From assembly GCA_026874595.1 (NCBI GenBank), contig CM049322.1, forward strand, positions 6,991,900 through 7,055,899: a stretch of 64,000 bases of DNA, read 5' to 3'. This DNA comes from Sipunculus nudus. Taxonomy: Eukaryota; Annelida; Sipuncula; Golfingiida; Sipunculidae. A program made the position numbers and the translations under genes. The notes under the pieces were generated by a model. That model did not search any database, was not told the DNA's origin, and saw nothing but the letters and a program-made list of their open reading frames with translations. Positions 1 to 63,995 of this stretch are shown piece after piece (the first letter of the stretch is position 1; each line of letters opens with the position of its first letter).

Positions 1-418
1 AACATTTGCTCCTGAAATTAAACTTGTTTTGTTATACTTGTAATATATCACACTCGCATTTTGCGGCATTTAAAATACACTAAATAAACCATAATTTATA
101 AAAAAATATATTTTATATCATTATCAGATAAAAAACAAGGTACTGACATCAATAGCTTTACCAATTGCTTATTCAATGTAAAAATACACCAGCGTTTAAA
201 GTGATTTATTTCTGATTACGATAAATACAAATCCGTTTATACAAGGGAACTTTCTTTTTTGTACAGTTGATTCAAATATATACGATATAATAACATAGAT
301 GTTGCAAATAGGATTTGTAAATCAATACTATTCTGGATCTTGGCTGATGAGGTTGCTTGGGTGCTGCTCTCCGTAGAATAACCATATAGATTATGGGTTG
401 TCCATCGCAAACTACTGT
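1..418 (-). other. Stalk exon (329-418) and start of TM exon (1-11) of copy 1
   Basis: The stalk exon is 90 nt, phase 1 on both sides, and encodes SSLRWTTHNLYGYSTESSTQ then ATSSAKIQN, rich in Ser/Thr as expected of an O-glycosylated stalk. The copy 2 equivalent (63059-63169) shares LYGY, TES, QATSS and QN. Bases 1-11 begin the next exon after TTTCAG and read A-N-V; this matches the start of the copy 2 transmembrane exon (V-N-L). The intron sequence between the two is also alignable to 62739-63058. Confidence 0.7.
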
Positions 419-2310
419 CTGTTAGGTCATATACATTTGATAAGAATAACATAGTATGATCCGTCAGGCACAGTTAACGTATAAATATCTATCATGTTTA
501 GTGGCTCCTATAAATCAATGCTTCTCATTTCCGACTTAAGGATTCGAAAAAACACAGAAAATATTCATTGCGATGGAAGATATCAACTGTCAGCTTTTCT
601 AAATTAAGAGATTCATACGTTTTATGTCGAACAAAATAATTTGTTAGCTTTATCGATTTAAATACTGTTGACATACGATATAGAGTAAGTAAAGAAAAAT
701 ATACTCACCTGGAATGCATTCAAACGGATGTAATGAATCACACGGAGCAACTTTCCATTGAAAGGTATGTTCTCCTACTTCCATTACCGAGCAGTTTCCA
801 GAGTTGGACGGCTCTCCCTCTCCCCAGAGTGATATTCCGTTGACCCCTAGGACTAGATACATATACTTAGATAAGACCTGCCCATGGTGTTTGTCCATGT
901 AAGTGGTCTACAATAATAACCTGGTGATGAAATAGTAAAGATGAATCATCAATGATGATACGCAATGCAATATGTTTTACAAATATATTCTTCGTATCAC
1001 CCTTACGATACGTACGTATATTTCCTCTTGAAAGCCAGTCCTCATTCCGTAACCCTAACCAAAATGTTGTACAGATAAAGGACACCGGAAAGTGTTTGTA
1101 TATATTTTTGTCCTCGATTACAGCCAGTGTCCCCCCTGACAACCTGCATTCCGACGCGGCATTGTACCAGTTTTTGTTGTCACAATGTAAACTATAACAG
1201 CTTCCACCCTTGACGAAACTTGACTTCTTTCCCCCAGGTATCAAGGAACATTCATCCTCTGCAAACAATTGTTAAGGTTATCTAAATAATACAATCATGA
1301 ACATAATTTTCTTGAACAGTTGAATATATTTTGACTCCCAGGTTTGCATTTTCAGCTTTTATTGATTAGTAACACGCGCAGATTAAGATGTATACTTATG
1401 AAGCTTAATGAGTTATTCACTATAAAATAACATTGGTATGACCTGTCGGCAATTTTAAGACTTTCAATTTTTACACATTTAAAAAAAATCAAAGGGTTAT
1501 AAGACCAGACATTTGGGGTCTTTGTAGATTTCACCTTTATTCTTGCATACGTGTCCGTGATTCAAAGAAGAGCAGCTTGTCATGGAGAGTCGGCCAGCCG
1601 ACGTATCATAAAACACACAACCATCAGTAATTATCAGCGATGCTAAATCTGTAACTGAGGAAACGTGTTCAGCATTCATTGATCTGATTATGATATATAA
1701 ATATGTATTATTTAATCGGAGAAAATCCATGATCCTTGGGAGAGTTTTAAACGTTAAACGTATAGTATTATTAAAATATGGTATTCCTTCCATGTGATAA
1801 AATTACTCACACGAGACGTTTGAGTCAATCCATTTCAGAGATTTTAATTTGTGACGTTTGAGATTCAGCCACGATGACGACATGTTATTCTTAAGTAGAT
1901 GCTTCCAAAACTTTTTATAGTCCTCCCTTGTATCCATGTAAGGGAGGAAAGAGTTGTTAGACAAACAGCATCTGTTTGCAGAACTATGTTTGGCTGGCTT
2001 GTGACAGTCCTCCGTACATGTAACAATACCTTGAAGGGAAATAAAAACGTGATACATCTATAAAACATGCCGAGGAAGGTGATGGTTATGATACGTGTCC
2101 CTAATCACTGTATTTAAAGTACTTACGCCAAAAAAAAAAATCATTTGGTTGTAAACATAATCTCAAGTGTTAAATATAATTTATTGTCATGAACCTGAAC
2201 GTGTCGTATGGGCTTCATGCTTTAACACTAGATCTGATATAAATCTTACCATATTTATGTAAAAGGAAAAAAACAAAAGAAAAAATAACTTGTCCCAAGC
2301 GTGGCTCCAT
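1..2310 (-). CDS. Two-domain C-type lectin receptor gene, 5' part (copy 1)
   Basis: Six coding exons and the start of a seventh read on the minus strand: 2250-2310, 1811-2029, 1535-1648, 1007-1258, 709-852, 329-418 and 1-11 (cut by the window edge). Each has AG/GT borders and an open frame, and every intron is phase 1, so exons join without a frame break. The start ATG (2308-2310) opens a hydrophobic leader; a CAG preceded by pyrimidines sits 3 bases upstream of it, so a 5'UTR intron is likely. The product begins signal peptide, degenerate CTLD, fuller CTLD, stalk. The last exon aligns with the transmembrane exon of copy 2 (62646-62738), so the gene probably continues off-window into a TM segment and GTPase. 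Likely role: cell-surface glycan or pathogen recognition (inference). The exon chain is well supported; the off-window remainder is inferred from copy 2. Confidence 0.8.
709..1258 (-). other. Second C-type lectin domain, two exons
   Basis: Exon 1007-1258 encodes CYSLHCDNKNWYNAASECR, then GGTLAVIEDKN and FWLGLRNEDW, the classical CTLD first half with the WxGL core. Exon 709-852 encodes LWGEGEPSNSGNCSVM, FQWKV and the closing cysteines (PCDSLHPFEC). EPS stands where mannose-type lectins have EPN; the WND site is replaced by W-K-V, so calcium-dependent sugar binding is uncertain. The donor after 1007 is GTAAGG and the acceptor before 852 is CTAG; joining them gives GNIRTYLLGVNG in frame. The domain has a close match at 63424-63995. 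Confidence 0.85.
1535..2029 (-). other. First (N-terminal) C-type lectin-like domain, two exons
   Basis: Exons 1811-2029 and 1535-1648 encode a Cys-rich start (CTEDC, CC), a helical stretch with DYKKFWKHLLKNN, the CTLD core pattern W-L-N-L ... L-K-W-I-D, and a C-terminal part with DGCVFYDTSAGRLSMTSC ending HVCK. The paired late cysteines and the W..L/W.D spacing fit a CTLD fold. No EPN, QPD or WND calcium/sugar motif is visible, so it may not bind sugar through calcium. The domain is more diverged than the second one. Confidence 0.65.
2250..2310 (-). other. Signal-peptide exon of copy 1
   Basis: The exon encodes M-E-P-R-L-G-Q followed by VIFSFVFFLL, a typical short n-region and hydrophobic core. 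It ends with one leftover base before a GTAAGA donor, and joins the 2-base start of the exon at 2029 to make a Gly codon. The mature protein then begins near IVTCTEDC. Confidence 0.75.
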
Positions 2311-2313
2311 AAC

Positions 2314-3231
2314 CTGGAATAAAAAGGTAATTGAGGTATATACATTGAACGCAGAGATATGCCTTATCGTTTTATTTGTTGGGCGAAGCGAATTTTATGT
2401 GATACATCTTTTAATTGTTTTTTGGGGCCAATAAAGCCTCGTTTCACATTAACTCACCTCTACGGAAGCTCCCTAGATTCAAGTCAAACACATCAGGAAT
2501 CAAACCAAATAATCATGGAAATACATTGCTTCGGTAGTGATATATACACCTTGTTTACTGTATGTATGGCAACCAGGTCAGTACCTTGTGTACTGTGTAC
2601 ATACACGATCAAGGCTTCTCAATCAGCTACGATATACCTGGACCTTAACCTGCAGGGGTATTTACGTTATGTAGAACATTTTTTTGCAGGTATATATTTA
2701 AATTATGTATGCATATGAATATATATTTTGGATATATTTTAATAAGAAGCTACTTGATAAAACTTATTTTAAATCAGGATTGTCTTTCAAATTGACATTT
2801 ACCTGCAAGTTCGAATGGTATCAGATCGAATGGTATCATTATCATTACCTATGCCACAGTGTCAACACAATTACTTTTGATGTCGGTTGTTATACACAAA
2901 CATACACACACACATATTTATATATATTAAAATATGTGTATAGCTAAATGTCACTAGGCCGTCAAAGATTAGAGCATTATCACATATTTTCACTGGGAAT
3001 TCACAAAACATTTTGGCATATTTTTTTCAATTTTCCTTATAGTTATTATTAGTCTAACTTCTAATTAACCACTAAAATAAAGGTATGAGGCTTCTGTATA
3101 ACAACACTTACTTAAACTGGCTTGAAAAAGATAATTCAGGGATTGATCCACCGAAAAACATTTCTTGCCTTTTATATTATCCAGTCATTAATAGATTATA
3201 TGTAATAGATTTATATAATTTTGGCAAAATA
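2314..3231. other. Upstream flank of copy 1, no gene seen
   Basis: This is the 5' side of the copy 1 gene. A 119-codon open frame on the plus strand (2359-2718) has no recognisable domain. The rest is AT-rich with a short CA/TA tract near 2893-2935. Confidence 0.4.
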
Positions 3232-37163: not shown

Positions 37164-38940
37164 AATCGGGTCAACCAAAAAACTGATTCACGGGGATGAC
37201 GGGAGTGATGGTCTATATCAGCAGATTTCTCTGTCAAAATGGTGCTTTACGCACAAATGTTTAAGTCAGCATATCTAGATAAATCTGTTAAAATGGATCA
37301 TTATCTACAGTTGGTTTAAGTAAATCGCCATGGGGAGACTTACAATAAGCCTTGCTAACACTGTTCTTAAACGAAAAGAGACATGTGGACAGACAAACTC
37401 GAATACGCATTGGAATAATTGAAAATTTGTATTCGAGTAATTCTTATCCTTATTCGGGCTTCTTTATTAAGTATTATGATAACCGCCCACTGAGGAGCAA
37501 AACGAAAGGAAATAAGGTAGCCTGTCTCAGTTAGATCAATGAAATAGTATCCATGCACAGAAAGTGAAACTGAAAACCTTACCTGATTTATCTTGGTCTT
37601 TGTTGGAGCTTGTGTTGCTATGCGTGACGTTGCTTTTGACATCATCGTAGGTATCTGGCTTTGTGTTATGCAGGGTCTTTGACCCAAATATTTGTTCCAA
37701 TCTACCTCTGATAAATGAACTAGAGTTAGAGTTGTCTAGCGAGCCGGACGTTTTTGTTATATCAGATACACATGTTCTCTCTCCAGATCCTGTGGTTATC
37801 TTGGCCGTAATCTTATTTTCTACCTCATTACACGTATATCTTTTATCGGATTCTGCCTCAGTCCTTATGGGTTTCCTCGGTAAAGTTGGACTGTCTATCT
37901 CATCCTTGCGATTTAATCTTCCGAATTGTTCAGTCTTGGTGTGTACTGTAGGTTTGGACACGATGCCTGGGGTTATCGTTTTAATTTGTGTGTGCTGTGA
38001 ATCGCGATCTTTCATCACAGGACCCTTTGTCTCAGTTTCCTGTTTAAGGATTTCGTTTGCTTTCCCGTCACTTAGTTTTTTTAATGCCAATTCCTTCGGT
38101 TTTACCGGAAGGGAAGGTTTAGTATTCCTTGCAAGACCGGATGGTTTTTCATCGGAAATTGGAAAACTACGAGGACTTCCGCACTGTTTCTGCGCTGGTC
38201 CCTTTTTCAGCGTCCCATATTTCTATGCTATTTTCTGTACACTCGGGACACGTTCATCAGGATCAGTCCATTTGTGATCTGCAGGTTTTGACACGTCGTC
38301 TGGAGTTACTATCTTATGTTTGGTGTTCGGTGATTCACGATCTTTCATCACTAAAAGATTGGCCTCGGTTTCATTTTTACGGATTTCTTTTGGTTTCCCA
38401 TCATTTGGGTTGTTTAATGGTAAATCCTCTGGTTTCACCGGAAGGGAAAATTTAGTAGTAGGTGGGAGACCAGAGGGTTTATGATCGGAAGTCAAAGAAC
38501 TACGAGGACTTCCACATTCTTCCTGCGCTGATCCCTTTTTCACCGACTCAAATATTTGTGCTAAATTCTTAACACTTTGGACACGTTCATCTGAATCAGG
38601 CCTTCGAGGCGGGGGATGTATCGTATCATCATCGCTCACTGACCTATCAAGGCTGCTTGTTTTTTCCGCAGCTACTGTTCTCCGGGCTGGCATACTGCAT
38701 CTTGAAGCTTCACTGGCACTTCGTATCAACTTATAACTACTAATAATATCATTTTCCAACACTTGCGCGTAATATTTTACTTTAGGTGAATTAATCTTCT
38801 CTGCCAGTGACACACTGGCCTCATCACCAGACCTTAAGGTACATTTCCTCGGTGATGAATCTTCAGACTCGCTTTTCTGATGTAATTGTTGTTTGATTGG
38901 GGCAATCTGACGTGTATGAGACAAATTTTGCATGGTGTAC
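34607..38940 (-). CDS. PARP-like mono-ADP-ribosyltransferase gene, partial and interrupted
   Basis: Three minus-strand exons join in frame: 37583-38940 (CAG-type acceptor after T8; ATG at 38931-38933), 35687-35895, and 34607-34752. The last two read PPLDPMLPPHWEFMDKNE then NFRLVEIPQSHPEYKEVEGV, FHQTM and RLLRAQNPILWQLYS. This is the start of the PARP catalytic domain of the PARP12/14/15/TIPARP type (HW..M..N..LVE...S.EY..V...F..TM...I....R.QNP.LW..Y). The first exon is Ser/Lys/Pro-rich and probably disordered; the second is acidic (DDEEDGDY). The His-Gly and later catalytic motifs should lie in exons nearer position 1 but were not found. An in-frame TAG at 38223-38225 breaks the first exon. 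It is likely a pseudogene, or a polymorphic or mis-assembled allele. Confidence 0.65.
36649..36806. mobile_element. Truncated copy of the pogo/Tigger-like element
   Basis: CAGTGAAACCTTGTTGTGTC and the following 150 bases match the left end of the element at 3232, including GGGACTGGTGAATTTACTTC and TATAGGGCCTATATTATATA. It lies in the first intron of the PARP-like gene. The right end is missing. Confidence 0.7.
37930..38597 (-). repeat. Two-unit coding repeat of 333 bp inside the PARP-like exon
   Basis: Unit 1 (38265-38597) and unit 2 (about 37932-38264) both begin D-S/P-D-E-R-V, continue K-K-G-x-A-Q, C-G-S-P-R-S, SD-K-P-S-G-L, SLPVKP, VMKDR and end near VSKP. The period is 111 codons. The TAG lies in unit 2 where unit 1 has a Gln codon (A-Q-I-F versus A-stop). 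Confidence 0.75.
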
Positions 38941-39104
38941 CTAAAAAAATAACGATTTCCTTGCTTACAATTATGTTTAACGATTAAATTCAATTATTTT
39001 TAGCGATTATATATCAGTGATATAGTAATGAACAACTTCCCTTCACTTTCACTGAACTTGAATTAAAACACCATTAGGGAAGCACACGTGAGCAAACAAA
39101 TATA

Positions 39105-44078: not shown

Positions 44079-45202
44079 AAGAAACCACGAAAGATACTTA
44101 GGATTGGTGATATGACATTGTAAAGACTGGCTTCAAAGGCTGGGTATTGAACTGTTTAATTATCACCTAAGATATGGATTAAATTTAGTCTGTGTGCACA
44201 TAGGACTATACGGCCATATGAATTGTGTTTTAAGCTTGTTGTAATCAGGATGTAAGTATATTCATGTATTTTTGTTATTTTCAAAAGATTGGACATACGG
44301 GAACCTTTGTTTATCATGTGAATTTTGCCGATGTACAAAAACTATCTAATATAGTTTACTAAATATCGTCTGTTTTTATATAATAAAAATGCAGTTAGGT
44401 AATAAGAGAACGTAAATGGACAAAAATAAATATCATTAAATGTGAAGCGTATACGGAATTATAAAAGAAACGCCGAAAAAATATTAAACTGGATGGTTAA
44501 ACACGGGGGATACAATAGTGTAACATTAATGTAAGAAGTAAATTGTACTGATGATGTGTTGAATATGTGGCGATCGCAGTGGTGAAGTGATAGTTATTAT
44601 TCATGTGGGTCTAGTAGCAGTCGTGGTTGAGGCCACACTCATAGGGAAGGACGTAGAATTTAAAGCTCAGAAGGTAACAAAAGATATCGATCGAAGGTTT
44701 ATTATTATGTATTGTATAATACAGGACGTCTCACAGATTTTCTTGATATATACGCACCTAATATAGAAACTGAACAAATGGATTTCGTCTTAAATTTAGA
44801 ATACATACTAAATGATTAATACAAAGATGTTATATCCAATGCTTAAGTGATAAGGTGCGGTGATTTCAACTGTCCACTATCGTTAATGGGTAGACACCAT
44901 GACAAAGTGAAACTTAAAGTTAGGTTAATTAAACAAGTGGCCCATGGGCAACGATGCTCAGCTAATTTTGACTGGGTTCTCATATTTTTATTAAAGTTAT
45001 ATATTGTATGTGAGAATAGCATGTGGCTAAAGTTACTGAATTGCAAAATGGAAAAATAAAAATAAAAACCGGGTTCATAGGAGACTGCCCAGGACGCCAC
45101 TGGATTTCACAACAGAGGTTTCCAAGGTAAATGGATACAATTTGTAGCCTGTCTGTCTGGGTGTTCAAAATCTGTTTTTACGGCCTGTAGGTCATAAAAT
45201 GT

Positions 45203-45217
45203 AGGTCACGATGACCT
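45203..45217. promoter_or_regulatory. Palindromic AGGTCACGATGACCT site
   Basis: Perfect inverted AGGTCA half-sites with a 3-base spacer (CGA), in a unit of the 155-bp array. One-mismatch relatives follow at 45361-45375 and 45517-45531. Confidence 0.4.
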
Positions 45218-45830
45218 AATTTCAGGTTTCCAAGGATATTTGCCTAGGACCTTCTTTAATGTTACATTGGCGGATTCTAGGCCTAATTGATACAATTTGT
45301 GCCCCTTCTGCCTGTGTGGGTGCTCAAAATTTTGTTTTTGGTCCATAGGTCACAAAATATAGGTCACAATGATCTAATTCCAGGTTTACAAGGGGATTAC
45401 GTAGAAACTCCCAGGATATTGTGTTAGAAGATTTTAGAGCTCCCTTATACTATTTGTCTCCATCTGACATTCAGGGCGCCTGAAATCATGTTTTTGGCCT
45501 TTAGGTCACAAAATATAAGTCACCATGACCTTATCTCGGGTTTCCAAGGAGATTTGCTTCGGACCCCCTAAATGTCACGTTGGAGGATTCTAGGCCTTAT
45601 CGATATACACTTGATACCCCGTCTGACTGTCTGGTTGCTCAAAATCGTGTTTTCGGCCAGTAGGTCATGAAATATAGGTAACATGACCTAAGTTTAGGTT
45701 TCCAAAGAGATTTGTCAAGAAACTCCCAGGATATTGTGTGAGAAGATTCTAGGCCTGACGGATACGGTTTTGGAGCCATCTAATTTCAGGGTGATCATAT
45801 GAAATCTTTTCTAAATAGGTCGCAGAATAT

Positions 45831-45845
45831 AGGTCACAGTGACCT
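45831..45845. promoter_or_regulatory. Palindromic AGGTCACAGTGACCT site
   Basis: Identical 15-mer to the one at 27576-27590, in a separate array of the same repeat family. Possible nuclear-receptor binding site; not tested. Confidence 0.4.
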
Positions 45846-48800
45846 AATTTCAGGTGTCCAAGGACATTTGTCTGGGATGTTTCAAAATGTCAGGTTTGAG
45901 GTTTCTAGGCCCAATGGATAAAATTTTTGCCCTGTCTGACCTAATTTCGGGATTCCAAGGAGATTTGCCCAGGACCTCCCTGGATGTACAGTTAGAAGTT
46001 TTTAGGTCTAACGGTTACGATTTGTACCCTGTTAATGGACGGACTGCCAGACGGCCGGACCGACGCCGGACAAAGGATGATCGCTATAGCTCAGATAACT
46101 CACAGCAAGCTGAGCTAAAGAAACTGGAAAGCTTAATGGAGAAATTCAATTTAGTGGATATATGGAGAGCTCTGAATCGGTTTATAAAGCAATTCACTTG
46201 TCGTACATTGAATCCATTGATTCAAAGATGATTAGATTATTTCCTTGTCTCTGTCGAATCGCAATCGACTGTGAAAAAAAGTTAAAATAAAAGCAGCGGT
46301 ACCAACAGATCATTCAGCAATAACTTTAGAATTAAACGATCTTAAGTATTCAGGCTCCGGTCCGTCTCATTGGAAGTCGCATACATCCTTATTAGAAGAT
46401 AATCTAATTCAGAGCAAGAACTCGCAAGAAAGATGAGAATACATAACATATAAGGTCAGAGAACAGTCGATTAGGTATTCAAAAGGAAAAGCAAAAGAAT
46501 TTCGGAGTGAATTGATAAGTTTAGAAATCCGTGTTTCTGAAAGGGAAACTGCTTGAAAGAAGATGTTTTAGGAACCGAAAAATACAAAAATGCTAAAGCT
46601 AAACTTGAAGAACATTATAACAAAACGACCGATGGAATTAAGATAAGGTCTCGGGCTCAGTGGTACTCATATGGAGTAAAATGAAATTAATAATTTTTAA
46701 ATTTGAAGAAAAGAAATTAAACTAAAACATGCATTCGTAGATTGCTGCTCGCAAATGGAAGGGAAATATTACGGGACCAGAAAATCTTGACAGGAATAAA
46801 GAAATGTTATAAGATAAAATATCAGCGAAAAATTAAGAAATCGGAAAATGGATGTGATAATTTCTTGAAAAATATTAACCTTGACAAAGGTACCGGATGA
46901 AGAAAAACTGATGTTGAATGAGTCCATGTCAATGCAAGAAATGAAACAAACTTTATTGTCAATGTCTAAACATAAAACGCCTGGTAACGATGGACTTTCA
47001 GCTGAGTTTTGCCTAAAATGATTCGTTCAAAATTTGGGCAAACATTTAATTAATTGTTTACGGGATAGCTATGCCAGAGGTTACTTATCATGTTCTCAAC
47101 GGAAAGCTTTAATATCACTGTTAAAAAAAAACTGGTACAGATAGCCATCTGATGAAATCATGGAGACCGATAAGCCTCATTAATACAGATGCAAAATAAT
47201 CAGTAAACTATTAGCAGTGAGATTAAGACGTGTTTTACCAAGGATTATAAGTACGAATCAGTTGCATTTGTTGAAGGGAGAACCATAGAGGAGCCTTTAT
47301 GATATAACAGCCGATTATGAAGCTGCTTTTGATTCTTTGGATTTTTGCTTCATAAACTCTGTGTTAAAAAAGTTCGGTTTCCAGCATTATTTTTAAGATG
47401 GAATCACATATTACACAACCAACTGGAGAATTGTGTCGTTAACAATGGATTCTCCACGGATTACTTCCCTGGCGAACGAGAATGTCGACAAGGGGACCCT
47501 TTATCTCCATATATATATTTATTATCAATGGAAGTTTTGTCTAAGATGGTCTAAGATAACACGCCTTGAGAGGGGTTAGATATCTATGGACACCAAATAA
47601 AATATGTGCTTTTCGCTGATGACTCTGCATTTTTATAAAAAAAAACGCAAACCATTTAAAACATTTAGAGAAGACATTATATCTATTTGAGAAGTATACT
47701 TCGCTTAAACTAAATCGGGCGAAAACTGAGACAGCGTGGACAGGAGAATCTAGGAAGCAAACGAAGCTAGATCCAGCTAATAAATGGGTGGATTTTAACG
47801 TAGAATACATACGGATTTTAGGAATAGACATATCTATAACAAAGAACTAATTTATACAAGAAATTTCAATAAGATAATTGATAGTATCAGGTCTCCCCTA
47901 AGAATGTGGAAGTCTCGCAACTTGACATTATACGGAAAGACATCCATTTTTTAAATTTCTGATATTACCAAAAGCTATGTATGTGTGTAATGTGTTAATT
48001 CCGACAAAGAATTTTATCAGTAAAGGATAATGTGGCCGATTTTATATAGGACGGCGGCGTCCCAAAAATTCAATACAAGGTTATTATTCAAGAAAAAAAT
48101 ATTAATGGATTTGGCCAGTACGGTCAAGGCACGGAGAATACTCTGGATGAAAAAATACTTTGAAAAGGAAGAAAAATTATGGAAGCTGATACCTCGTTTT
48201 ATCTGACAAAAAAGCGGGTTCAAGGTGCCAGGTACAAACCTGTATAAAGCAAGAATTAAATCAGCTGTGCCTTCATTTCTATAAACTATGTTTACCTGAA
48301 TGGTGTGGTATGTATGAGAGTGACCCATGTGATAAGGTCGGTGGTCTAGAACAACACTCGTTGAATAACAAGTAAATAAAAATTAACAGAAAATCGATAT
48401 ATTTTGAGGATTTTTCAGAAAAAGGATTGAACTACATAAATGATCTAATTGATAATACTGGCAAATTTAAAGTTCTAAGTGATCTTAAAGTACCCAAGTC
48501 AAAGGTGTTCATTTGGCGCATGTTAAAACATGCAATCAAAACAGCGTGGCTACAAATACTTAGAGAGTCGCGTGATATACTGACAGCTTCGGAACATACA
48601 TGTAGACCACTTGAAGATTGTAAGGTGAATATAGATAAGATTAGCACCAAAGGTATGTATAGTAGACTAATATTGAATATACAGGTCATTCCGACTGGGA
48701 GGTGTTATCTGAAGAAATGTGTTAACGCTGACGTTAACTGGAAAAAATGTATACAAAACTGTTTACAGTAGAACTATTGATACGAGGTTACGTGCTTTTC

Positions 48801-52459: not shown

Positions 52460-53656
52460 AGTTGTCATAAAACGGGAAAAAATGAAGTGCATTGAATTAC
52501 ATGAATCACTTGCTACTAATAGAGCAGTAAATACGATATTGTATGTTATGTTTTGGTATTCAGCAGATATTTCAAAAGGAAAACTTGCCCCGTCCCATCG
52601 TGATATGTAAAATTATCGAAACAACAATAGGCTACAACATGCAAATGAAGAGACAAACTTTCTTAAAAGAAAAAAAATAATTGTGTGGCCAACTTGTGTG
52701 GTTTCTTTAAAAAAATGAATATAATAACTAGTAAGGGAGCTTTTATCTTTCTGCAAAGCTGTTCATTTTGAAAATGCATACTTTTGTGTTACAGCCCTTT
52801 TTCCAAAGCTGAAATTTCCAAACTTAACACGTATCAAGTAAGAGTTCATTACAGGGGTATAAACGTGTAGATATGGATAATGAAGATCTGATCGACCTAA
52901 CAATGTCATTGTTCCCTGTGATTCGGAGGAAGAAAGGAAGGAGAATACATTCATATTGCAGATTGAATGAGAAAAGTCACGTATAAGTTGTCATAAAACG
53001 GGAAAAAATGAAGTGCATTGAGGTTTAAATATATGATATAAAGAGCGAAAAAAAAATCGGTACTATGAAAAATTGGTTGTAATTCCAAGGTGGTATATTT
53101 TTTTTCCAATAGACTTTCTGGTATCATTTTCATTTTATCTTTTTTTATCATGTTTCAGTGCCTCATCTCACATGAATCACTTGATACTAATAGAGCGGTA
53201 AATACGATATTGTATGTTATGTTTTGTTATTCAGCAGATATCTCAAAAGGAAAACTTGCCCCGTCCCATCGTGATATGTAAAATGCTCGAATCAACAATA
53301 GGCTACAACATGCAAATGAAGAGACAAACTTTCTTAACAGAAAAAAATAATTGTGTGGCCAACTTGTGTGGTTTCATTAAAAAAATGAATATAATAACTA
53401 GTAAGGGAGCTTTTATCTTTCTGCAAAGCTATTCATTTTGAAAATGCATACTTTTGTGTTACAGCCCTTTTTCCAAAGCTGAAATTTCCAAACTTAACAC
53501 GTATCAAGTAAGAGTTCATTACAGGGGTATAGACGTGTAGATATGGATAATGAAGATCTGATCGACCTAACAATGTCATTGTTCCCTGTGATTCGGAGGA
53601 AGAAAGGAAGGAGAATACATTCATATTGCAGATTGAATGAGAAAAGTCACGTATAT
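52460..53656. repeat. Recent tandem duplication
   Basis: Unit A (52460-52984) and unit B (52985-53656) share AGTTGTCATAAAACGGGAAA at the left and GAGAAAAGTCACGTATA at the right, and are nearly identical in between. Unit B holds about 145 extra bases (53021-53167), most simply a deletion in unit A. A 63-codon minus frame is repeated unchanged (52763-52954 and 53433-53624), and the plus strand has MDNEDLIDLTMSLFPVIRRK at 53543. Neither matches a family I know. Confidence 0.85.
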
Positions 53657-53779
53657 GCTATTACCAAAATCCAAATGCCACAAATGTCTGTTAAGTGCAA
53701 GTTTTATTTCTGTAACTTTAGTATGAGGCTTATTATTGCCATATTGGCGAATATATTTAATTGAAATTTAGCTTAGTGA

Positions 53780-54470: not shown

Positions 54471-55850
54471 TTACTTATACTTCCATGCATTGTTCTCAAA
54501 TCTAAATACATGGCAGCACAGTTCCCTATTTATTTTAGGGACTCTGTTTCTAACAAAGACCTTCCAGCTATGGGGTTTTGCCCTGATCCATGCTAATGCT
54601 ACCATTGAATCTGTCAAACATCGGTAACTCACATGGACAGGGAGATGTAACGCCTCTCTAACAAACACGAGTAGTCTACAACAGAGCAAAGATCCAAGAA
54701 GTTCAAGCCTGGACAAAGAAATTTGTTTCAGAGGTGCAACTTTAGCCTTTGATAGGAATAAACTGGACTTCAAAATCCCATCCTTGCAGTTGACAACAAT
54801 GTACACACATGCCCCATAAGCCTTCTCACTCGCATCCCCAAAAGCATGAAGAGTGATATCATCACTGTCTTTCCAACCCTCATATGAGTATGTTCTAGGA
54901 ACATACCAGGACTTTAGCTCTTCTAGGTCCTTAATCCATTGATTGAATTGTCTCTTCAAGTTATATGGAAGCTCATCATCCCAGAGACATCCACTTCTTC
55001 AGATATCTTGGAACAAACATTTCCCTTGCATAACAAATGGAGCAATGAGCCCCAAAGGGTCAAATACCCTTGACACAAAACTCAAGACCACTCTCTTTGT
55101 AACTAGAGTATATTCAAGAATTTTGATTCCGTCAAAAGAAAAGCTATCTTTTCCTGCTATCCACTGAAGTCCCAAGACCTTAAGAGAACCAGTATCTAGG
55201 CTTTTGCCCTTAAAATTTGTGTTCAACATTTCAGACAATACTTCACTGTTAGAACACCATTTTGAAAATGACATACCAGCTTTTTCCATGATGTTGGATG
55301 CTTCCACAACCATGCTACAGGCTTCAAAATCATCATCGGCCCCTGACAGCCAGTCATCAACATACATGTTATCTTTTAGCTCCTGTACAACACATGTATC
55401 TGGAACAGTCTTTAGGTGATATATGATAGTTGCATTTAAGAGGAAAGGACTGGCACGATTACCGAATGGGACTCTCACAAATCTCATGATTCTCTCCGAA
55501 TTATCACCTTTTAACAGGAATCTATGCACATCTTGGTCACATTTCTTAACCTGGATCTGGAGAAAAGCCTTTGTAATATCTGCAGCAATTGCTACTTTCC
55601 ACCTCCTAAAACGGATTAGAATGCTCACCAAGTTAGGTATCAAGCTAGGTCCTGTTTCCATACAATCGTTACCAGATATGCCATTATATCCCTCTGCAGA
55701 TGCGTCAAAGACAGGTCTCACTTTAGCGGTTAAACTATCTTCTCCTACGACAGGTCTGTGGGGTAAGTACAATGTAGGATTAGTAGGATGACGTACACAA
55801 AGGGAAATTAATTTCACAATTGAGTCTCTGGCCGAATAAGTAGCATCCGC
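54471..55850 (-). pseudogene. BEL/Pao reverse transcriptase and RNase H, one in-frame stop
   Basis: The RT shows VRPVFDASAEG, AADITKAFLQIQV, VRVPFGNRASPFLLNATI and the catalytic YVDDWLSGADDD. After VSRVFDPLGLIAPF and a TGA at 54999-55001, the same frame continues WDDELP, then HAFGDASEKAYGACVYI, KVAPLKQISLSRLELLGSLL and TDSMVALAWI, the Pao-type RNase H. The TGA stands where Trp is usual (F-Q-D-I-W). It is non-functional in this copy; no restored sequence is given. Confidence 0.85.
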
Positions 55851-56998: not shown

Positions 56999-59080
56999 TT
57001 ATTGGCAGGGGTTAAACAAAAGCGTATCTTCAAATAATTCTAGATCATCCTGTGTTCTTGTCCTTAGCCTCTCCTCAACAGCTGCTCGTTCCGGGAGTGA
57101 CAACGAATTTCCTGAGTGGACCATCTGGACAGATTGTGCTAGAAACTCTTTATGCTTCTGCCTTAGCTCATCTGTTGTGCGAATCCTTCCTTCTCGGACA
57201 ATCTGCAAACAAAATTCTCATAAATGAATATCTTTACAAGGAAGTAAAGAGAAAAATTTCTCAGCCATGTTCACACAAACATTAATATAAAGAAGCATTT
57301 ATGTTTAAGTATTCTTATTTCATTGGTATTGATGAGAATTGTTTTAAAGTACTTTATACTTACAGTTTTCATGTTAGTCCTGTAGTCGTAGTATGCTCTT
57401 AGAAATGCTTCGTTTCCCTTGGAGAAAATGTAATGAGGCTTTATGTATACTTGTGTTATACGTGAACGAAATTCAATTTCATGTGTGTGGATAACAAATG
57501 TATTTTTGTTTAAAGATGGAACGTCACTCACCTTTGGGTTTTCTTCGTTAAATAACATTTTGAGATTTTTTTCCAGTTTTGTTTTGTAAATATTTGAGTC
57601 ATCCCCTTTGAATTCGTCACTCCAATCTCGGATAGTGTTTTCCACTAGCATCTGTATATTTTGGGGAGATAACTCCTTCTCCTAACAAAAGCAACATACT
57701 AATCATGAAGTCATTTCAAAATAATTTACTTACAATAAATGATTACTTCGCCCAACTGTAATGTCTTAACAAATTGCGAAATGTAAGAAAATATTCCTAT
57801 ACCTACCTTGTTTATCTGAATGAAGAAATGGTCGAGTGCGGACTTTAATTTTAACTTATTGGACTCCAGTAGCATCGCCTAATTAAATATGTTCAACAGT
57901 TTTTTTTCACAATATCCCTTAAAAATAACTTCAATTTTTCAAGGCTATCTTATTTCATCAACATATCGTTTTGATTTGTAAGATTTATTGTAAAGCCTAA
58001 TCAAAGAATTGATGTTTTTGTCAATATATCTACACTATTATTGGTTTTCTACTAATAATAGTTTAGATTAGTTTAATGTTTATATAATATAGAATTCTGT
58101 GATTCAAAATTATGCCGCTGGATGGAAATTACATTTTTCTGCGAAAAACCGCTTGCTTTATTAATAACTAATCATTAGTTTTCTTTAGTTTTTAAGCACA
58201 AGCTGTATAACATTTAAAAGCCTACGATATATTAGTAATTTACTTGACTGTGATTTTATCGCGTACATTGGTCTCTATTTAAGAACTTACGGTAAAGGTT
58301 GTTTCTGGTCTTGCAAAGTTAGGATCATTACACATTGAAGGGAATCTCTAAAGGAGATAATGATAGAAAACATTTACCGTGTACATTAAAAATTATTTGA
58401 TCATTTACAAAATAAAAAAAAATGTTGTAATGTTTGCATGTATTCACAATACTCTTAACCTTTTGAATAATGATCACACTTGGGAAAGTAATACCGAAAA
58501 TAGAACTTTCAATAAAAGACAAAAGGAAAATTTAAGAGGCTGGGACACTCTTTGCCAATATATTGGATGGTCTCATCAACGTTTTTCAGGTTCCAAGCTG
58601 ATATTATCTGTATCAAATTCTGATTGGGTAAAATATTATCTTTGTTTCTATGTTGTGTCGCTGTCGTATCATTACATGACTGGCAATGATCTCAACGTAT
58701 GATCATCTGATTGGGGTAGGCCTATGCTGTAAGCGGTTTAAAAACTGGTTTGTTCGAGGTACCGACTATAGTCAGTGACCGTTAGAATGGTAATCAAAGA
58801 CCATCTCGGTCCTACAGCCACAAATTCACTCGCCCCATTACAAGCTTGGAAAGATTTTTCAAAGCTGAAAGCATCATTCATTAAAGCCCTATATTTGAAT
58901 AATAATAAATATTGGAATGGGTTAGGAAATTTTTGTAAAGTGAAATGATTACAATACATTTTTCGTATAACTCCTCTCCGCCAGTCCAATTGATGTACTT
59001 TTTCATTTGGGCGGCGACGTATGGCTTAAAAAGGATCCTTGGGAATTCGCAGAGTCCTTCCTGGAATGCCTTACTTAAAC
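56999..59080 (-). other. Helical middle and C-terminal region of the GTPase
   Basis: Exons 58953-59080 (GLSKAFQEGLCEFPRILFKP, KYINWTGGEELYEKCI), 58291-58347, 57807-57878 (AMLLESNKLKLKSALDHFF), 57532-57681 (ELSPQNIQMLVENTIRDWSD), 57364-57417 and 56999-57202 follow the atlastin order of post-GTPase helices (L.P..., GEELP, ML.A....N, APNDLQ). The tail has IVREGRIRTTDELRQKHKEF and ends LLFNPCQ. There is no C-terminal membrane hairpin and no CaaX box, consistent with anchoring by the N-terminal TM helix. The intron at 59081-59295 holds a (TA)n tract. Confidence 0.8.
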
Positions 59081-59211
59081 CTGCAAGGGGTATGTCCACT
59101 TTTATTTTAAAGATGAACTTTAGCATTCATGTAATTTATGTTTCTTGTTAACATTATTACGGAAGTTATCGAGGTTAAGTGTGATATAAGAAGTAACACT
59201 ACAGCGTTTAT

Positions 59212-59268
<57 letters not shown>

Positions 59269-62200
59269 ACGAATGGAAAAATTCACGATACTTACCACTC
59301 AGTACTCCTTTATACGTATCACTTGTATGCGCAGACAACGGATGATACGGCTTTGCCATTAGAAAACATTCCGTTGCGCTCCCGCTTAGATGCTTAAAAT
59401 CTGCAGGCTTAAAGTAAACAATATGTTTTAACAAAAATAACCAACGGACCGGGCCTTTCGTCCCAACCGCCATTACGGCTAACATTTGCTGATGCTCATA
59501 TATTTGAAAGATATTTCAATCAAGTAAAAATTGCTAACACCCGTTGATTCAGTATCATGGGCATACTTTTTTTAAGCTAAGAGCTCGCGTCGTCCAGCAA
59601 ATGCGATCCCATAGTATTGTATAACAGTTGTTCCGGTTTACTAACACTGCCGAGTGGTACTGCCTCGCAAACGATCAAAGGGGATAATGCTGCCATTTAA
59701 TTAACTCCAAGGTTTACCATCCGGGAGGGTATGAGTATCCAATAAGAACCTATCAATATCCTTGCCCAACAGCAACCATTTGTGTCATAATTGCTTAATG
59801 GGCGTGTTTTTGCCCTCCGGTCCGTGGTACAGTTTTCTCGATCATTTGTACAACTGATGATATGGTTAATTCTAAATATCTAAATACTTTCATACCCAAC
59901 TACTTTGAACTTTGAGGAGTAAGCAAAGTGTATTTACGCTTCCGTGAAACAACATACTTTGTGCACAAAATAATCGCGTTTGAATAAAATGAGGTGGTCA
60001 TCATTGAGCGCTTTAAAATCAGTTTGTTCAATTAAACTACAAACTATATATACATGGACAATTGTGGCTGCTTTATAATATATTCAAAATTATTAACAAT
60101 ACTCAAATAATAAAGCACGTCAAAACTTATATTTGGATCAATATAAGAATTTAACCAATATGATCCCCGTCAAATTATAACCACCTGTATCAATTACCTT
60201 GGTGGTTCTAATTATTGGGTGCCAAACTACAGTTGTTAGTACTAATAACTGACAGGTTTAAGTAAATTATACAAAGAGCAAAACATTTTTGCTATGGCAA
60301 AATTGATACAAATTTTTCCTTTGTTATCTCATTCAAATATGTTTTTCCTCCCTCTGATCCCAGAGGGAATCTATCGCTGGGAGTTCTATCCCGTACGAGG
60401 AATATAAGTCGCTGAAATATATGATGCCCTTATTATTTATCAACCCATAACGGGCCATAAGGCTTCGCATCAAAAGTGTTGTATTGGCTAAAAGAAGGTA
60501 CCATTAGTTTTAAGAGGCACTTCATTTTTGGGTCACAATTTACAAATATATACTTAATGGTATCTCTTCCAGTTCGGAAATATTCCCATAAAATACCAGA
60601 CAAAAGTTCCACGACAGCAAAGCGTGCTAATTGAGGAAACTGACCAGGCTTTTAGAAAATCTTACTTCTTATAGGGTTTAGATAAAAAGAAATACAGAAG
60701 AACAGAAGTAATGCATCTTAAGAGGATATAAAATGAAAGGATGATTTTGCCAATGTATCGGTACCAGTTTATAAATTAACTTCTTACACTACAACATTCA
60801 TAAAAGATAAATCCTATAATTACACTGTTGAAGAATTGTAACAGACCTTGATTATTTGTCTGGCCGTTCCACATGTGCTTTTATTCAAGATCCCTGCAGT
60901 TTTGAGAAGCAGCTTCAATAGAAAAACAAATAAACAACCATTAAAGCACAAAGTCATCCATACGTTTCCAGATGGATCTGAAAAAAGCAGCTATATTTAC
61001 CTCATAGTGGGTCAAATCTTGTTCACTTATCTTTTCCATTGTGTTGTAAATCTGTAAAAAAATATCGCACAATATCTGATTAATTTTAAACATTTTACTA
61101 CATTTAGTTAACAACATGTTATCTATTTAAAGTAGAAGTATATGTACCTGAACATCGCTGAGCAGAGCACTCAATGTCACCAAGGTATTGGCTTCAGGAT
61201 TGTGCTCGCTGTCGAAAAGTCCTTGAGTATCCATTAATAAAACTGCAATCTGGAAAACACTGATAGCTCTTACATCTGAATAAGTCTACATTGTTCATTA
61301 TAAAGAAAGAATGGACAAACTGAAATGCAAACTATTTTTTAGTAGTATATAAGTCAATATTTTTAAGTGATGTACTTAACCTCCTTGCCATTATCAGTTC
61401 TTATATAGATGGGTCTGCTCCACATCCATACACCATAAGTCGCGACTGAAGTTCCATGTGTCCATGCGAATCCTGTAAGTTCCTTGGTTTTATCTTCCAT
61501 CCAGACATCCTCCTCTCTTTTTTCCTTCGAAACAAAAGAAATAAGGATAAAATAGGTAAAATATGAAAATTGCTAATTTTTTTTATGTCCTTGTGTTATT
61601 ATTACTGTGGAAGACAAAAACGATACGAAAAGCCTGGATAAGATAGGCATGTATTTTTAAGACAAGACTTTTCCACCACATTTCCCAAGAATCACTTAAT
61701 TATTAGAATAATTTGCTTACATATGCCAACAGGTAACGTAATATATAATTCATCAGAAATGATTTCCCAGTTCTGAATGGCCCAGCAATTGACACTACAA
61801 GTAGTGGAACGGACGGCTTATATGCTTCCCTATGTAATAGGATTCGTCTGAGGTTATGCCCACAAGGGAAAAAATGTCCTGTTTCTTGATTGTAGGACAC
61901 AACTTGCAAAGCTTCCCCTTGTTCACCTGCAACAAATATTTGAAAACATCATAGATCATGTTAACACAGATGACTGTTAAAGGATACAAAGTGCGATTAA
62001 GCTCAGTTTGGTTTAAAAATATGAAAAAAATATACATATATTATGTTATATCTCATTTCTTACATAATCTTATACCTCCGACTTACTAATAAATATTAAA
62101 ATATTAAAATTACGTATACCACCAATGTGTATCACCCACAAAGAGGTAGGTAATCACCTTCCGGTAATTCTACTCCCTTTTCCTGTTTCACTGGTGAATA

Positions 62201-63995
62201 TGCTAGAATTCACAATTATATAATTATCTATATTCGTGTATATGCAATAAATTCATATGTACTAAAACCAATAAGAGACAATGTGAATTTAACAAAGCAA
62301 AAGTTTAGATATATCCATTAACGTCAATTTGCATTTACGAAATTGCCTTGAACAGTTCCTGCAAATGTGAAGAAGTATTGTAATCTCACATCTATCGTTT
62401 CTTCTCCGCTTCTGATTCTGCATACATCAATATATAAAACAGAATTGCATTTAAATGGAATTCAACAAAATGAATATGATTCTTTTTGTCAAATTGACTG
62501 AATCAATATGCTAATTGTTAATTTCTGAACAGATTATAACATATATTAATTATTTATCAAAATAAACGTAATTTATTTATAATAATAATAAATAAAATTG
62601 TATTAGTAATTATTCGCTAATATATGGAAGGATCATATTTTTTACATACATGTTTGATGAATACCGCAAGAAGAATAACAAACAAAGCTACTACAGCTAT
62701 AATCACCAAGATGATCGCATATGGTGGAAGATTTACTTCTGAAATTAAAAGTGTTGTTATACCTGTAATATTTCACACCGGCATTTTGCGTTATTTAAAA
62801 TACATTCAATGCATCATACTGTTTTATAATTAATCTTTAATATGATAATCGGATAAAAAACAAGTAATGACATCAATATCTGTGCCAATCGTTCATTTTT
62901 AGAATCGTAATGTTACACGGACACCATCGTTTTAATTTGTTCAATGCTAATTTAGAGAACACAAATCCGTTTATTCAAGGAAACTGGATCTCTTTGTACA
63001 GTTGTTCCCAATTTAAATTATAACGTTGATTTTGTTAAGAAGTATTGTAAATAAATACTGTTCTGAAGCTTGGGTGATGAGGTTGCTTGGGGATAGCTCT
63101 CCGTATAATAACCATACAGAGTATGGTTTGTGGGTTGCAAACTACTATCAGGGAGGTCATTTTCAGTTCCTAAGAAAATCATGTATGATCACTCTGGCAC
63201 AGTATACCCACTCATTTCATTTATATCTTTATTATTTTAATACCCCTATGAAATAGAAATAAGTCCAAATATCTTCTTTATTCGATGAAATATCCATACT
63301 GGTAGCTGTCCTGAATTACCAATTGAAACGTTTTGAGGCGAGTGAAAGTTGTAAGTTGTTAGTTGTATCGATTGATATACTGTATCCATATGGTATATAG
63401 TAAATAATGATACATATATTCACCTGAAATACATTCAAATGGTTGTAATGAATTACACGAGACAACTTTCCATTGAAAGGTATGTTCTTCTACTTCCATT
63501 ACCGCGCAGTTTCCAGAGTTGGATGGCTCTCCCTCTCCCCACAGTGATATTCAGTCGACCCCTAGGACTAGATGAATGAACTTGGAATACACCTAACTAT
63601 GTTATTTCACGTGTGTCAATAGTTGTTAATTTTAGTAGTCTACAATTAAATCCTGAGGACGTCATAGTAAAGATGAACCATACACCATTTATGATTGGCA
63701 ATGTAATAAGTTTACCAATATGGTATTTTACTTGGTACAACCTTAAAATACGTACAATTTCCTCTTGATAGCCAGTCCTGATTTCGTAAACCGACCCAAA
63801 ATGTTGTACAGATAACTGAAATCGGAAACTGTCTGTATATATTTTTGTCCTCGATCACTGCGAGTGTTCCCCCTGACAACCTGCATTCCGCTGCAGCATT
63901 GTACCAGTTTTTGTTATCACAATGTAAACTATAACAGGTCCCTACCACAATGAAACTGGACTTCTCTCCTCCAGGTATCAAGGAACAAACATCCT
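56999..63995 (-). CDS. Lectin-receptor/atlastin-GBP-type GTPase fusion gene (copy 2), 5' end off-window
   Basis: Minus-strand exons: 63740-63995 and 63424-63567 (second CTLD, damaged), 63059-63169 (stalk), 62646-62738 (TM), 62158-62202 (juxtamembrane), then GTPase exons 61721-61926, 61381-61524, 61148-61249, 61001-61051, 60597-60639, 60310-60428, 59296-59407, 58953-59080, 58291-58347, 57807-57878, 57532-57681, 57364-57417 and 56999-57202 (TAA). From the stalk to the stop, all phases fit and no frame breaks, giving about 560 codons. The predicted product is a type I membrane protein with outside lectin part and a cytosolic GTPase of about 480 residues. Likely role: coupling surface recognition to membrane remodelling or pathogen-compartment attack (inference). 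The fusion rests on splice-phase agreement and the absence of a start codon before the GTPase; a transcript would be decisive. Confidence 0.7.
59296..61926 (-). other. GB1/RHD3-type GTPase domain
   Basis: Motifs in order: G1 LVVSIAGPFRTGKSFLMN (exon 61721-61926); switch I region FAWTHGTSVATYGVWMWSRP (61381-61524); G3 AVLLMDTQGLFDSEHNP (61148-61249); IYNTMEKISEQDLTHYE (61001-61051); FPQLARFAVVE (60597-60639); G4 FQRLIFLVRDRTPSDRF (60310-60428); and ECFLMAKP with YKGVLS (59296-59407). The arrangement follows atlastin (VAGAFRKGKS, DTQG, LVRD), with a GBP-like RTGKS P-loop. All GTP-binding residues expected in G1, G3 and G4 are present. The segment between the G4 exon and ECFLMAKP is shorter than in atlastins, so one small exon may be missed there (59408-60309 holds nothing else recognised). 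Confidence 0.85.
62158..62202 (-). other. Juxtamembrane linker exon of copy 2
   Basis: A 45-nt exon between ATTCTAG and GTGATT encodes YSPVKQEKGVELPE. It takes 2 bases at its start and leaves 1, so it joins the TM exon and the P-loop exon exactly. A second AG 12 bases in (after CACCAG) also keeps the frame and would shorten the linker by four residues. The polypyrimidine tract is weak. Confidence 0.55.
62646..62738 (-). other. Transmembrane exon of copy 2
   Basis: After AATTTCAG the exon reads V-N-L-P-P-Y then AIILVIIAVVALFVILLAVF and I-K-H-V. This is a single 20-residue hydrophobic helix followed by basic residues, as for a type I membrane protein. A GTAAAA donor at 62644-62645 leaves one base and matches the next exon. 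A GTATGT four bases earlier is a stronger-looking donor but gives the wrong phase. If unspliced, the frame adds CKKYDPSIY and stops at 62624. Confidence 0.75.
63059..63169 (-). other. Stalk exon of copy 2
   Basis: The 111-nt exon follows TTTTCTTAG and ends at GTATTT. It encodes TENDLPDSSLQPTNHTLYGY then YTESYPQATSSPKLQN. It is 21 nt longer at its 5' side than copy 1 because a different acceptor is used; both keep phase 1. It contains one N-glycosylation sequon (N-H-T) and Ser/Thr/Pro residues typical of a stalk. Confidence 0.65.
63424..63995 (-). pseudogene. Second C-type lectin domain of copy 2, disrupted
   Basis: Exon 1 (from 63995) encodes CYSLHCDNKNWYNAAAECRL, GGTLAVIEDKN and FWVGLRNQDW, very close to copy 1. 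Exon 2 (63424-63567) encodes WGEGEPSNSGNCAVM and FQWKVVSC. Two lesions are visible: a TGA at 63551-63553, where copy 1 has GGA, and loss of the GTAAGG donor at the end of exon 1 (copy 1 TATCGTAAGG, here TATTTTAAGG). No alternative donor seen keeps the frame. Because flanking introns are phase 1, skipping both exons would leave the gene in frame. Confidence 0.75.

What the first reader, a model, noticed from the sequence alone, without database searches (positions are those of the whole stretch)
56999..63169. Predicted transmembrane lectin receptor fused to an atlastin/GBP-type GTPase
Stalk, TM, linker and all GTPase exons on the minus strand join with matching phases and no internal stop. The GTPase has G1 GPFRTGKS, G3 DTQG and G4 LVRD. 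The P-loop exon begins inside a codon and has no start ATG, so it needs an upstream exon, and the 45-nt linker exon fits both sides. A surface lectin directly linked to a dynamin-superfamily GTPase would let ligand binding act on membrane fusion, fission or vacuole attack. I know of no described receptor of this design; that is a statement from memory, not a search.
Basis: partly seen in the sequence, partly recalled or inferred. Interest (0 to 1): 0.92.

Follow-up and report, generated by a model that had tools for sequence, protein, structure and literature searches.

The report
Lectin-like receptor fused to atlastin-type GTPase
This animal genome carries a small gene family that appears to encode a cell-surface lectin-like receptor joined through the membrane to an atlastin-type membrane-shaping GTPase; the copy in this window looks damaged, but three sister copies keep the same exon plan and read open as far as they were followed.

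Summary
The parts are real: Lectin_C-like domain, stalk, transmembrane (TM) helix, atlastin/GBP GTPase. From the window alone I judged two neighbouring genes likelier: the TM exon has its own stop, a start exon can be drawn, and the lectin exon holds an in-frame TGA. The whole genome reversed that. The cassette CTLD-CTLD-stalk-TM-GTPase recurs at three further loci (B, C on the same contig, D on another), plus a decayed fifth. In A-D the TM exon ends in phase 0, the next exon enters in phase 0, is lysine/arginine-rich and leaves in phase 1, which the P-loop exon needs. A scan found this pair at A-D, at 0 of 10 other GTPase loci and 0 of 15 antisense stretches (thresholds set after seeing A-D). 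B reads open from a start Met through CTLDs and TM into the GTPase. The CTLDs lack the usual sugar-binding motifs. There is no transcript evidence, and other species are untested.

The parts
63756..63995 (-). Copy A, CTLD2 exon a
   Evidence: Pfam Lectin_C on joined CTLD pieces; start set by analogy with B
63424..63561 (-). Copy A, CTLD2 exon b, with in-frame TGA at 63553-63551
   Evidence: B reads Gly at that place
63059..63169 (-). Stalk exon, phase 1 to 1
62650..62738 (-). TM exon, phase 1 to 0 (89 nt; also 89 nt in B and D)
62390..62411 (-). 22-nt basic juxtamembrane exon KRRRNDR, phase 0 to 1; conserved connector
   Evidence: 20 of 22 bases and both splice sites kept in B; equivalents in C and D
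62158..62202 (-).
   Evidence: 69% identical in B, both splice sites lost there; D has a different 1-1 exon here
61721..61926 (-). GTPase exon G1 with P-loop GPFRTGKS
61381..61524 (-). GTPase exon G2
61148..61249 (-). GTPase exon G3 with DTQG
61001..61051 (-). GTPase exon G4
60847..60912 (-). GTPase exon G5
60310..60411 (-). GTPase exon G6 with LVRD; its end is uncertain, donor 3/9
59296..59392 (-). GTPase exon G7, start uncertain
58959..59080 (-). Exon after G7 (helical region), end uncertain
56999..57878 (-). Provisional C-terminal exons (57878-57807, 57681-57532, 57417-57364, 57202-56999)
   Evidence: not joined to the upstream exons in one frame
1..2310 (-). Sister copy B, lectin half (signal peptide, CTLD1, CTLD2, stalk, first bases of TM exon); its GTPase half lies outside the window

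Best explanation
One gene, member of a small family in this genome, encodes a type I membrane protein: signal peptide, two C-type-lectin-like domains, short stalk, one TM helix, basic juxtamembrane segment, then a cytosolic atlastin-type dynamin-superfamily GTPase. Shown from sequence: module order, exon phases, recurrence at four loci, intact G motifs. Inferred: transcription as one mRNA; topology; and that clustering of the ectodomain brings GTPase heads together so that GTP-dependent pairing, as in atlastin, tethers or remodels the membrane holding the receptor (for example a phagocytic cup or phagosome) or builds a signalling scaffold. Copy A in this window is probably non-functional as assembled.
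For: Same order CTLD1-CTLD2-GTPase at A, B, C, D, D on another contig, with P-loop exon identity to A of 81, 55 and 52%. TM exon (1 to 0) plus basic exon (0 to 1) upstream of the P-loop exon at A-D, not at 10 other GTPase loci and not at 15 antisense stretches. Spliced with GT-AG at each joint, B reads open from Met through G3, and C and D from CTLD2 through G3. B has no Met in the frame of its basic or P-loop exon and no ATG-to-phase-1-donor exon (donor 6/9 or better) between TM and P-loop exons. Net charge +4 to +6 after the helix against -1 to +1 before it. A/B dN/dS 0.20 and 0.34 for CTLD2 exons, 0.23 for G1+G2+G3+G6.
Against: No transcript. Copy A has an in-frame TGA and an altered G6 donor. 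A, C and D each have an ATG from which a separate GTPase could start (A MQNQKRRRNDR; C several in the basic exon and one in G1; D at the first codon of the basic exon). Scan thresholds were set after A-D were seen. The scan reaches 4.7 kb upstream only; L023, counted among the 10, has CTLDs about 7 kb upstream. 0 of 60 homologues from other organisms carry PF00059. A phase-1 P-loop exon without Met also occurs at L013, L014 and L023, so it proves nothing by itself.
Confidence: 0.83

Rival explanations
1. Two adjacent head-to-tail genes that were duplicated together: a membrane lectin ending in or just after the TM exon, and a soluble atlastin-like GTPase with its own short first exon.
For: In A the TM exon read through ends at 62619-62617 with AATAAA at 62577; an ATG at 62423 gives MQNQKRRRNDR in phase with G1; 54 of 60 homologues (those starting with Met and showing the P-loop pattern) begin a median of 5 residues before the homologous exon start; C and D also have possible start ATGs; several homologues without a TM exist.
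Against: The A start exon is expected by chance (68% of shuffles) and its ATG is absent from B; B has no comparable start. The read-through tail of A is shifted by a 1-base gap in B. In D the TM exon ends on the hydrophobic helix and only the next exon supplies basic residues. The same order at ~50% divergence on another contig.
Confidence: 0.12
2. Both products exist: a fused receptor and a short lectin or short GTPase made by alternative ends or optional exons.
For: AATAAA at 62577; the 45-nt exon is open 1-1 with an 8/9 donor, a feature of 16 of 354 same-size tiles at those thresholds; D has an extra 1-1 exon there.
Against: Tail and 45-nt exon are not kept in B; at looser thresholds such mini-exons occur in 37-45% of shuffles.
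Confidence: 0.05

Closest known systems
Atlastins (e.g. PDB 6b9g, 6xjn, 6xjo)
   Same: GTPase domain with G1, G3, G4 motifs and the Arg of the P-loop; sequence match 5.3e-36
   Different: N-terminal ectodomain and single TM before the GTPase; no hydrophobic hairpin found in the provisional C-terminal tail (best 19-residue mean 0.37)
Guanylate-binding proteins (PF02263)
   Same: Pfam GBP domain
   Different: Solved GBPs score far lower (6e-9 at best) than atlastins; tail ends NPCQ, no prenylation box by eye; ectodomain and TM
Transmembrane C-type lectin receptors, expanded in bivalves (PMC10140915, passages seen)
   Same: CTLDs, stalk, single TM, phase-1 introns between extracellular exons
   Different: Cytosolic part is a large GTPase; that paper's main text has no 'GTPase', 'GBP', 'guanylate' or 'atlastin'

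Membership tests
Atlastin family | GTPase domain with P-loop Arg, DTQG, RD motif | tested here: met
   role of the Arg is recalled
Atlastin family | C-terminal TM hairpin | tested here: not met
   no hydrophobic stretch in the provisional tail of A; tail exons not joined in one frame, so a missed exon is possible
Atlastin family | Three-helix middle domain | not tested
   no structure prediction was made
GBP family | Closer to GBP than to atlastin GTPase; prenylation box | tested here: not met
   tail end read
C-type lectin-like domain proteins | Lectin_C domain | tested here: met
   B 8.6e-15, C 1.3e-10, D 3.8e-8
Sugar-binding C-type lectins | EPN/QPD and WND motifs (recalled) | tested here: not met
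   CTLD2 of B and C reads EPS and lacks WND, D lacks both (by eye)
Type I membrane receptor | Signal peptide, one TM, positive charge on the inner side | tested here: inconclusive
   TM and charge pattern met in A-D; signal-peptide-like start in B, by hydropathy only (1.68), SP-like exon in A outside the window, none assigned in C or D

The most novel reading that the evidence does not exclude
A first 'receptor GTPase': a conserved class of surface receptors whose cytosolic effector is a dynamin-superfamily GTPase, so that recognition outside acts directly on membrane tethering, fusion or scission without an adaptor.
Probability: 0.5. Interest if true: 0.92.

Novelty: new variant of a known kind. 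Interest (0 to 1): 0.8.

Why it matters
If made as one protein, it puts a membrane-remodelling GTPase on the inner end of a recognition receptor, joining recognition to membrane fusion or scission in one molecule, and both halves can be assayed directly. Four loci and a decayed fifth suggest an evolving, perhaps immune, gene family.

Tried and rejected
Two-gene reading: preferred until the genome could be searched, then demoted, because the start ATG at 62423 and the read-through tail are not kept in B and B has no comparable start; possible start ATGs remain in A, C and D. The 45-nt linker as the essential connector: rejected, B lost both splice sites. 'No start ATG in the P-loop exon' as proof of fusion: rejected, other GTPase loci share it. 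Tree placement: unresolved, long branch. L023: CTLD ORFs about 7 kb upstream of another GTPase and a hydrophobic stretch at 3169; outside the range of the scan, left open. Joining the C-terminal exons: failed. Published precedent: searches (listings and abstract starts) and passages of PMC10140915 showed none; subscription papers and preprints are not covered. Protein searches listed 60 distinct proteins; no source name among them names a mollusc, none carries PF00059; these searches are limited by shared words and protein length, so absence in other species is not shown.

Full report
What is in the window. On the minus strand, 63995-56999 holds CTLD2 exons, a stalk exon, a TM exon and a run of GTPase exons. 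Joined GTPase exons match Pfam GBP at 4.6e-35. Among solved structures atlastin-1 comes first (5.3e-36), then other atlastins and one unnamed-family entry (9jju, 5.5e-26), GBPs far behind (6e-9 at best). The provisional tail shows no TM hairpin. The GTPase is a divergent, long-branched row in a 55-row tree, unresolved within an open group of 30.

The window alone was ambiguous, and I first leaned against fusion. The TM exon read through ends at 62619-62617 with AATAAA at 62577. An ATG at 62423 could start a GTPase in phase with the P-loop exon, though such an exon appears in 68% of shuffles. Fifty-four of 60 homologues (6 dropped for lacking Met or the P-loop pattern) start a median of 5 residues before the homologous exon start. 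The CTLD exon has an in-frame TGA at 63553-63551 where a sister copy at 1262-1 reads Gly.

The genome settles most of it. The assembly (1.43 Gb, 153 contigs) gave 28 matches to the P-loop exon, a lower bound; 15 of the 28 were fetched. Copy B, about 63 kb away in the same orientation, has lectin and GTPase at the same spacing. C (C17:6.759 Mb) and D (C12:35.331 Mb) have CTLD1, CTLD2 and GTPase in the same order; E (C17:6.842 Mb) keeps stalk, TM and a broken P-loop exon. Identity of the P-loop exon to A is 81% (B), 55% (C) and 52% (D).

The junction. In A and B the TM exon ends at the same GTATGT donor in phase 0 (A: 62650). The next conserved block is a 22-nt exon (A: 62411-62390, KRRRNDR; B: KRRRNDK) with acceptor and donor kept and 20 of 22 bases identical, entering in phase 0 and leaving in phase 1, as the P-loop exon needs. 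C has KRRAKKDHN... and D MNRKRRHRATFKKD in that place with the same phases. A scan for such a pair within 4.7 kb upstream found it at A, B, C and D; at E only a TM exon; at none of the 10 other fetched GTPase loci; at none of 15 antisense stretches. Its thresholds were chosen after A-D had been seen. A CTLD profile built from B, C and D found CTLDs at A-D and at L023 among the 15 loci; L013-L017 reach only about 5 kb upstream. L023's CTLDs lie about 7 kb upstream, beyond the range of the scan. The 45-nt linker is 69% identical in B and has lost both splice sites there; D has a different 1-1 exon at that place.

Open frames. Spliced with GT-AG at each joint, B is open from its Met through CTLD1, CTLD2, stalk, TM, basic exon, G1, G2 and G3, and C and D from CTLD2 through G3; A has one stop, the TGA. 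B has no Met in the frame of its basic or P-loop exon and no ATG exon with a phase-1 donor of 6/9 or better between TM and P-loop exon; A has one, D one, and C eight combinations, so the separate-start reading is excluded by this test only in B. The copies were not followed in one frame beyond G3; a joint of the tail exons of A failed.

Constraint. A/B dN/dS is 0.20 and 0.34 for the CTLD2 exons, 0.47 for the stalk, 0.50 for the TM exon, 0.19 for the basic exon (two changes in all) and 0.23 for G1+G2+G3+G6, which suggests purifying selection on both halves. Copy A nevertheless has the TGA, and its G6 donor differs from B's good one; it is probably non-functional as assembled or spliced unusually.

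Function. B starts with a signal-peptide-like stretch. Net charge after the helix is +4 to +6 against -1 to +1 before it, so CTLDs should lie outside and the GTPase inside. The CTLDs lack the recalled EPN/QPD and WND motifs, so the ligand may not be a sugar. The likeliest mechanism, inferred from atlastin, is that clustering promotes GTP-dependent pairing of the GTPase heads and thereby membrane tethering or remodelling, or a signalling scaffold. None of this is tested.

Novelty. 0 of 60 distinct homologues listed by three searches carry PF00059. One of 60 has a hydrophobic stretch before its P-loop by my scan (P0040, overlapping the GTPase's own first strand); the signal-peptide-like start of P0035 was not flagged. 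Six literature searches (listings and abstract starts) and passages of PMC10140915 show no such protein. Presence in other species is untested.

Noticed in passing
L023 (C17:35258760-35268660): CTLD ORFs 1476-2377, hydrophobic stretch 3169, GTPase about 9420 (minus-strand orientation): A further GTPase locus with CTLD exons about 7 kb upstream; possibly another, more distant fusion.
   Followed up: partly
window 63553-63551 and near 60318: Two differences of copy A from B that would disrupt it: TGA in the CTLD exon and a changed donor after G6.
   Followed up: partly
proteins P0031 (Diamesa tonsa) and P0035 (Clunio marinus): P0031 has three P-loops in one atlastin-like protein; P0035 begins with a signal-peptide-like stretch.
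   Followed up: no
window 54471-55850 (-): Pao-type retrotransposon remnant (RVT_1 and Peptidase_A17) just downstream of the GTPase gene.
   Followed up: partly
window 37536-38993 (-): Two consecutive open frames with repeated motifs and no Pfam match.
   Followed up: partly
window about 52460-53660 and 45100-46040 (+): A direct repeat of about 0.5 kb, and an array of diverged repeats around 'aggtcac..gacctaatttcaggtttccaagg' (seen).
   Followed up: no
genome G000: Many CTLD matches are similar 360-380 aa open frames spread over many contigs, as if carried by a mobile element.
   Followed up: no
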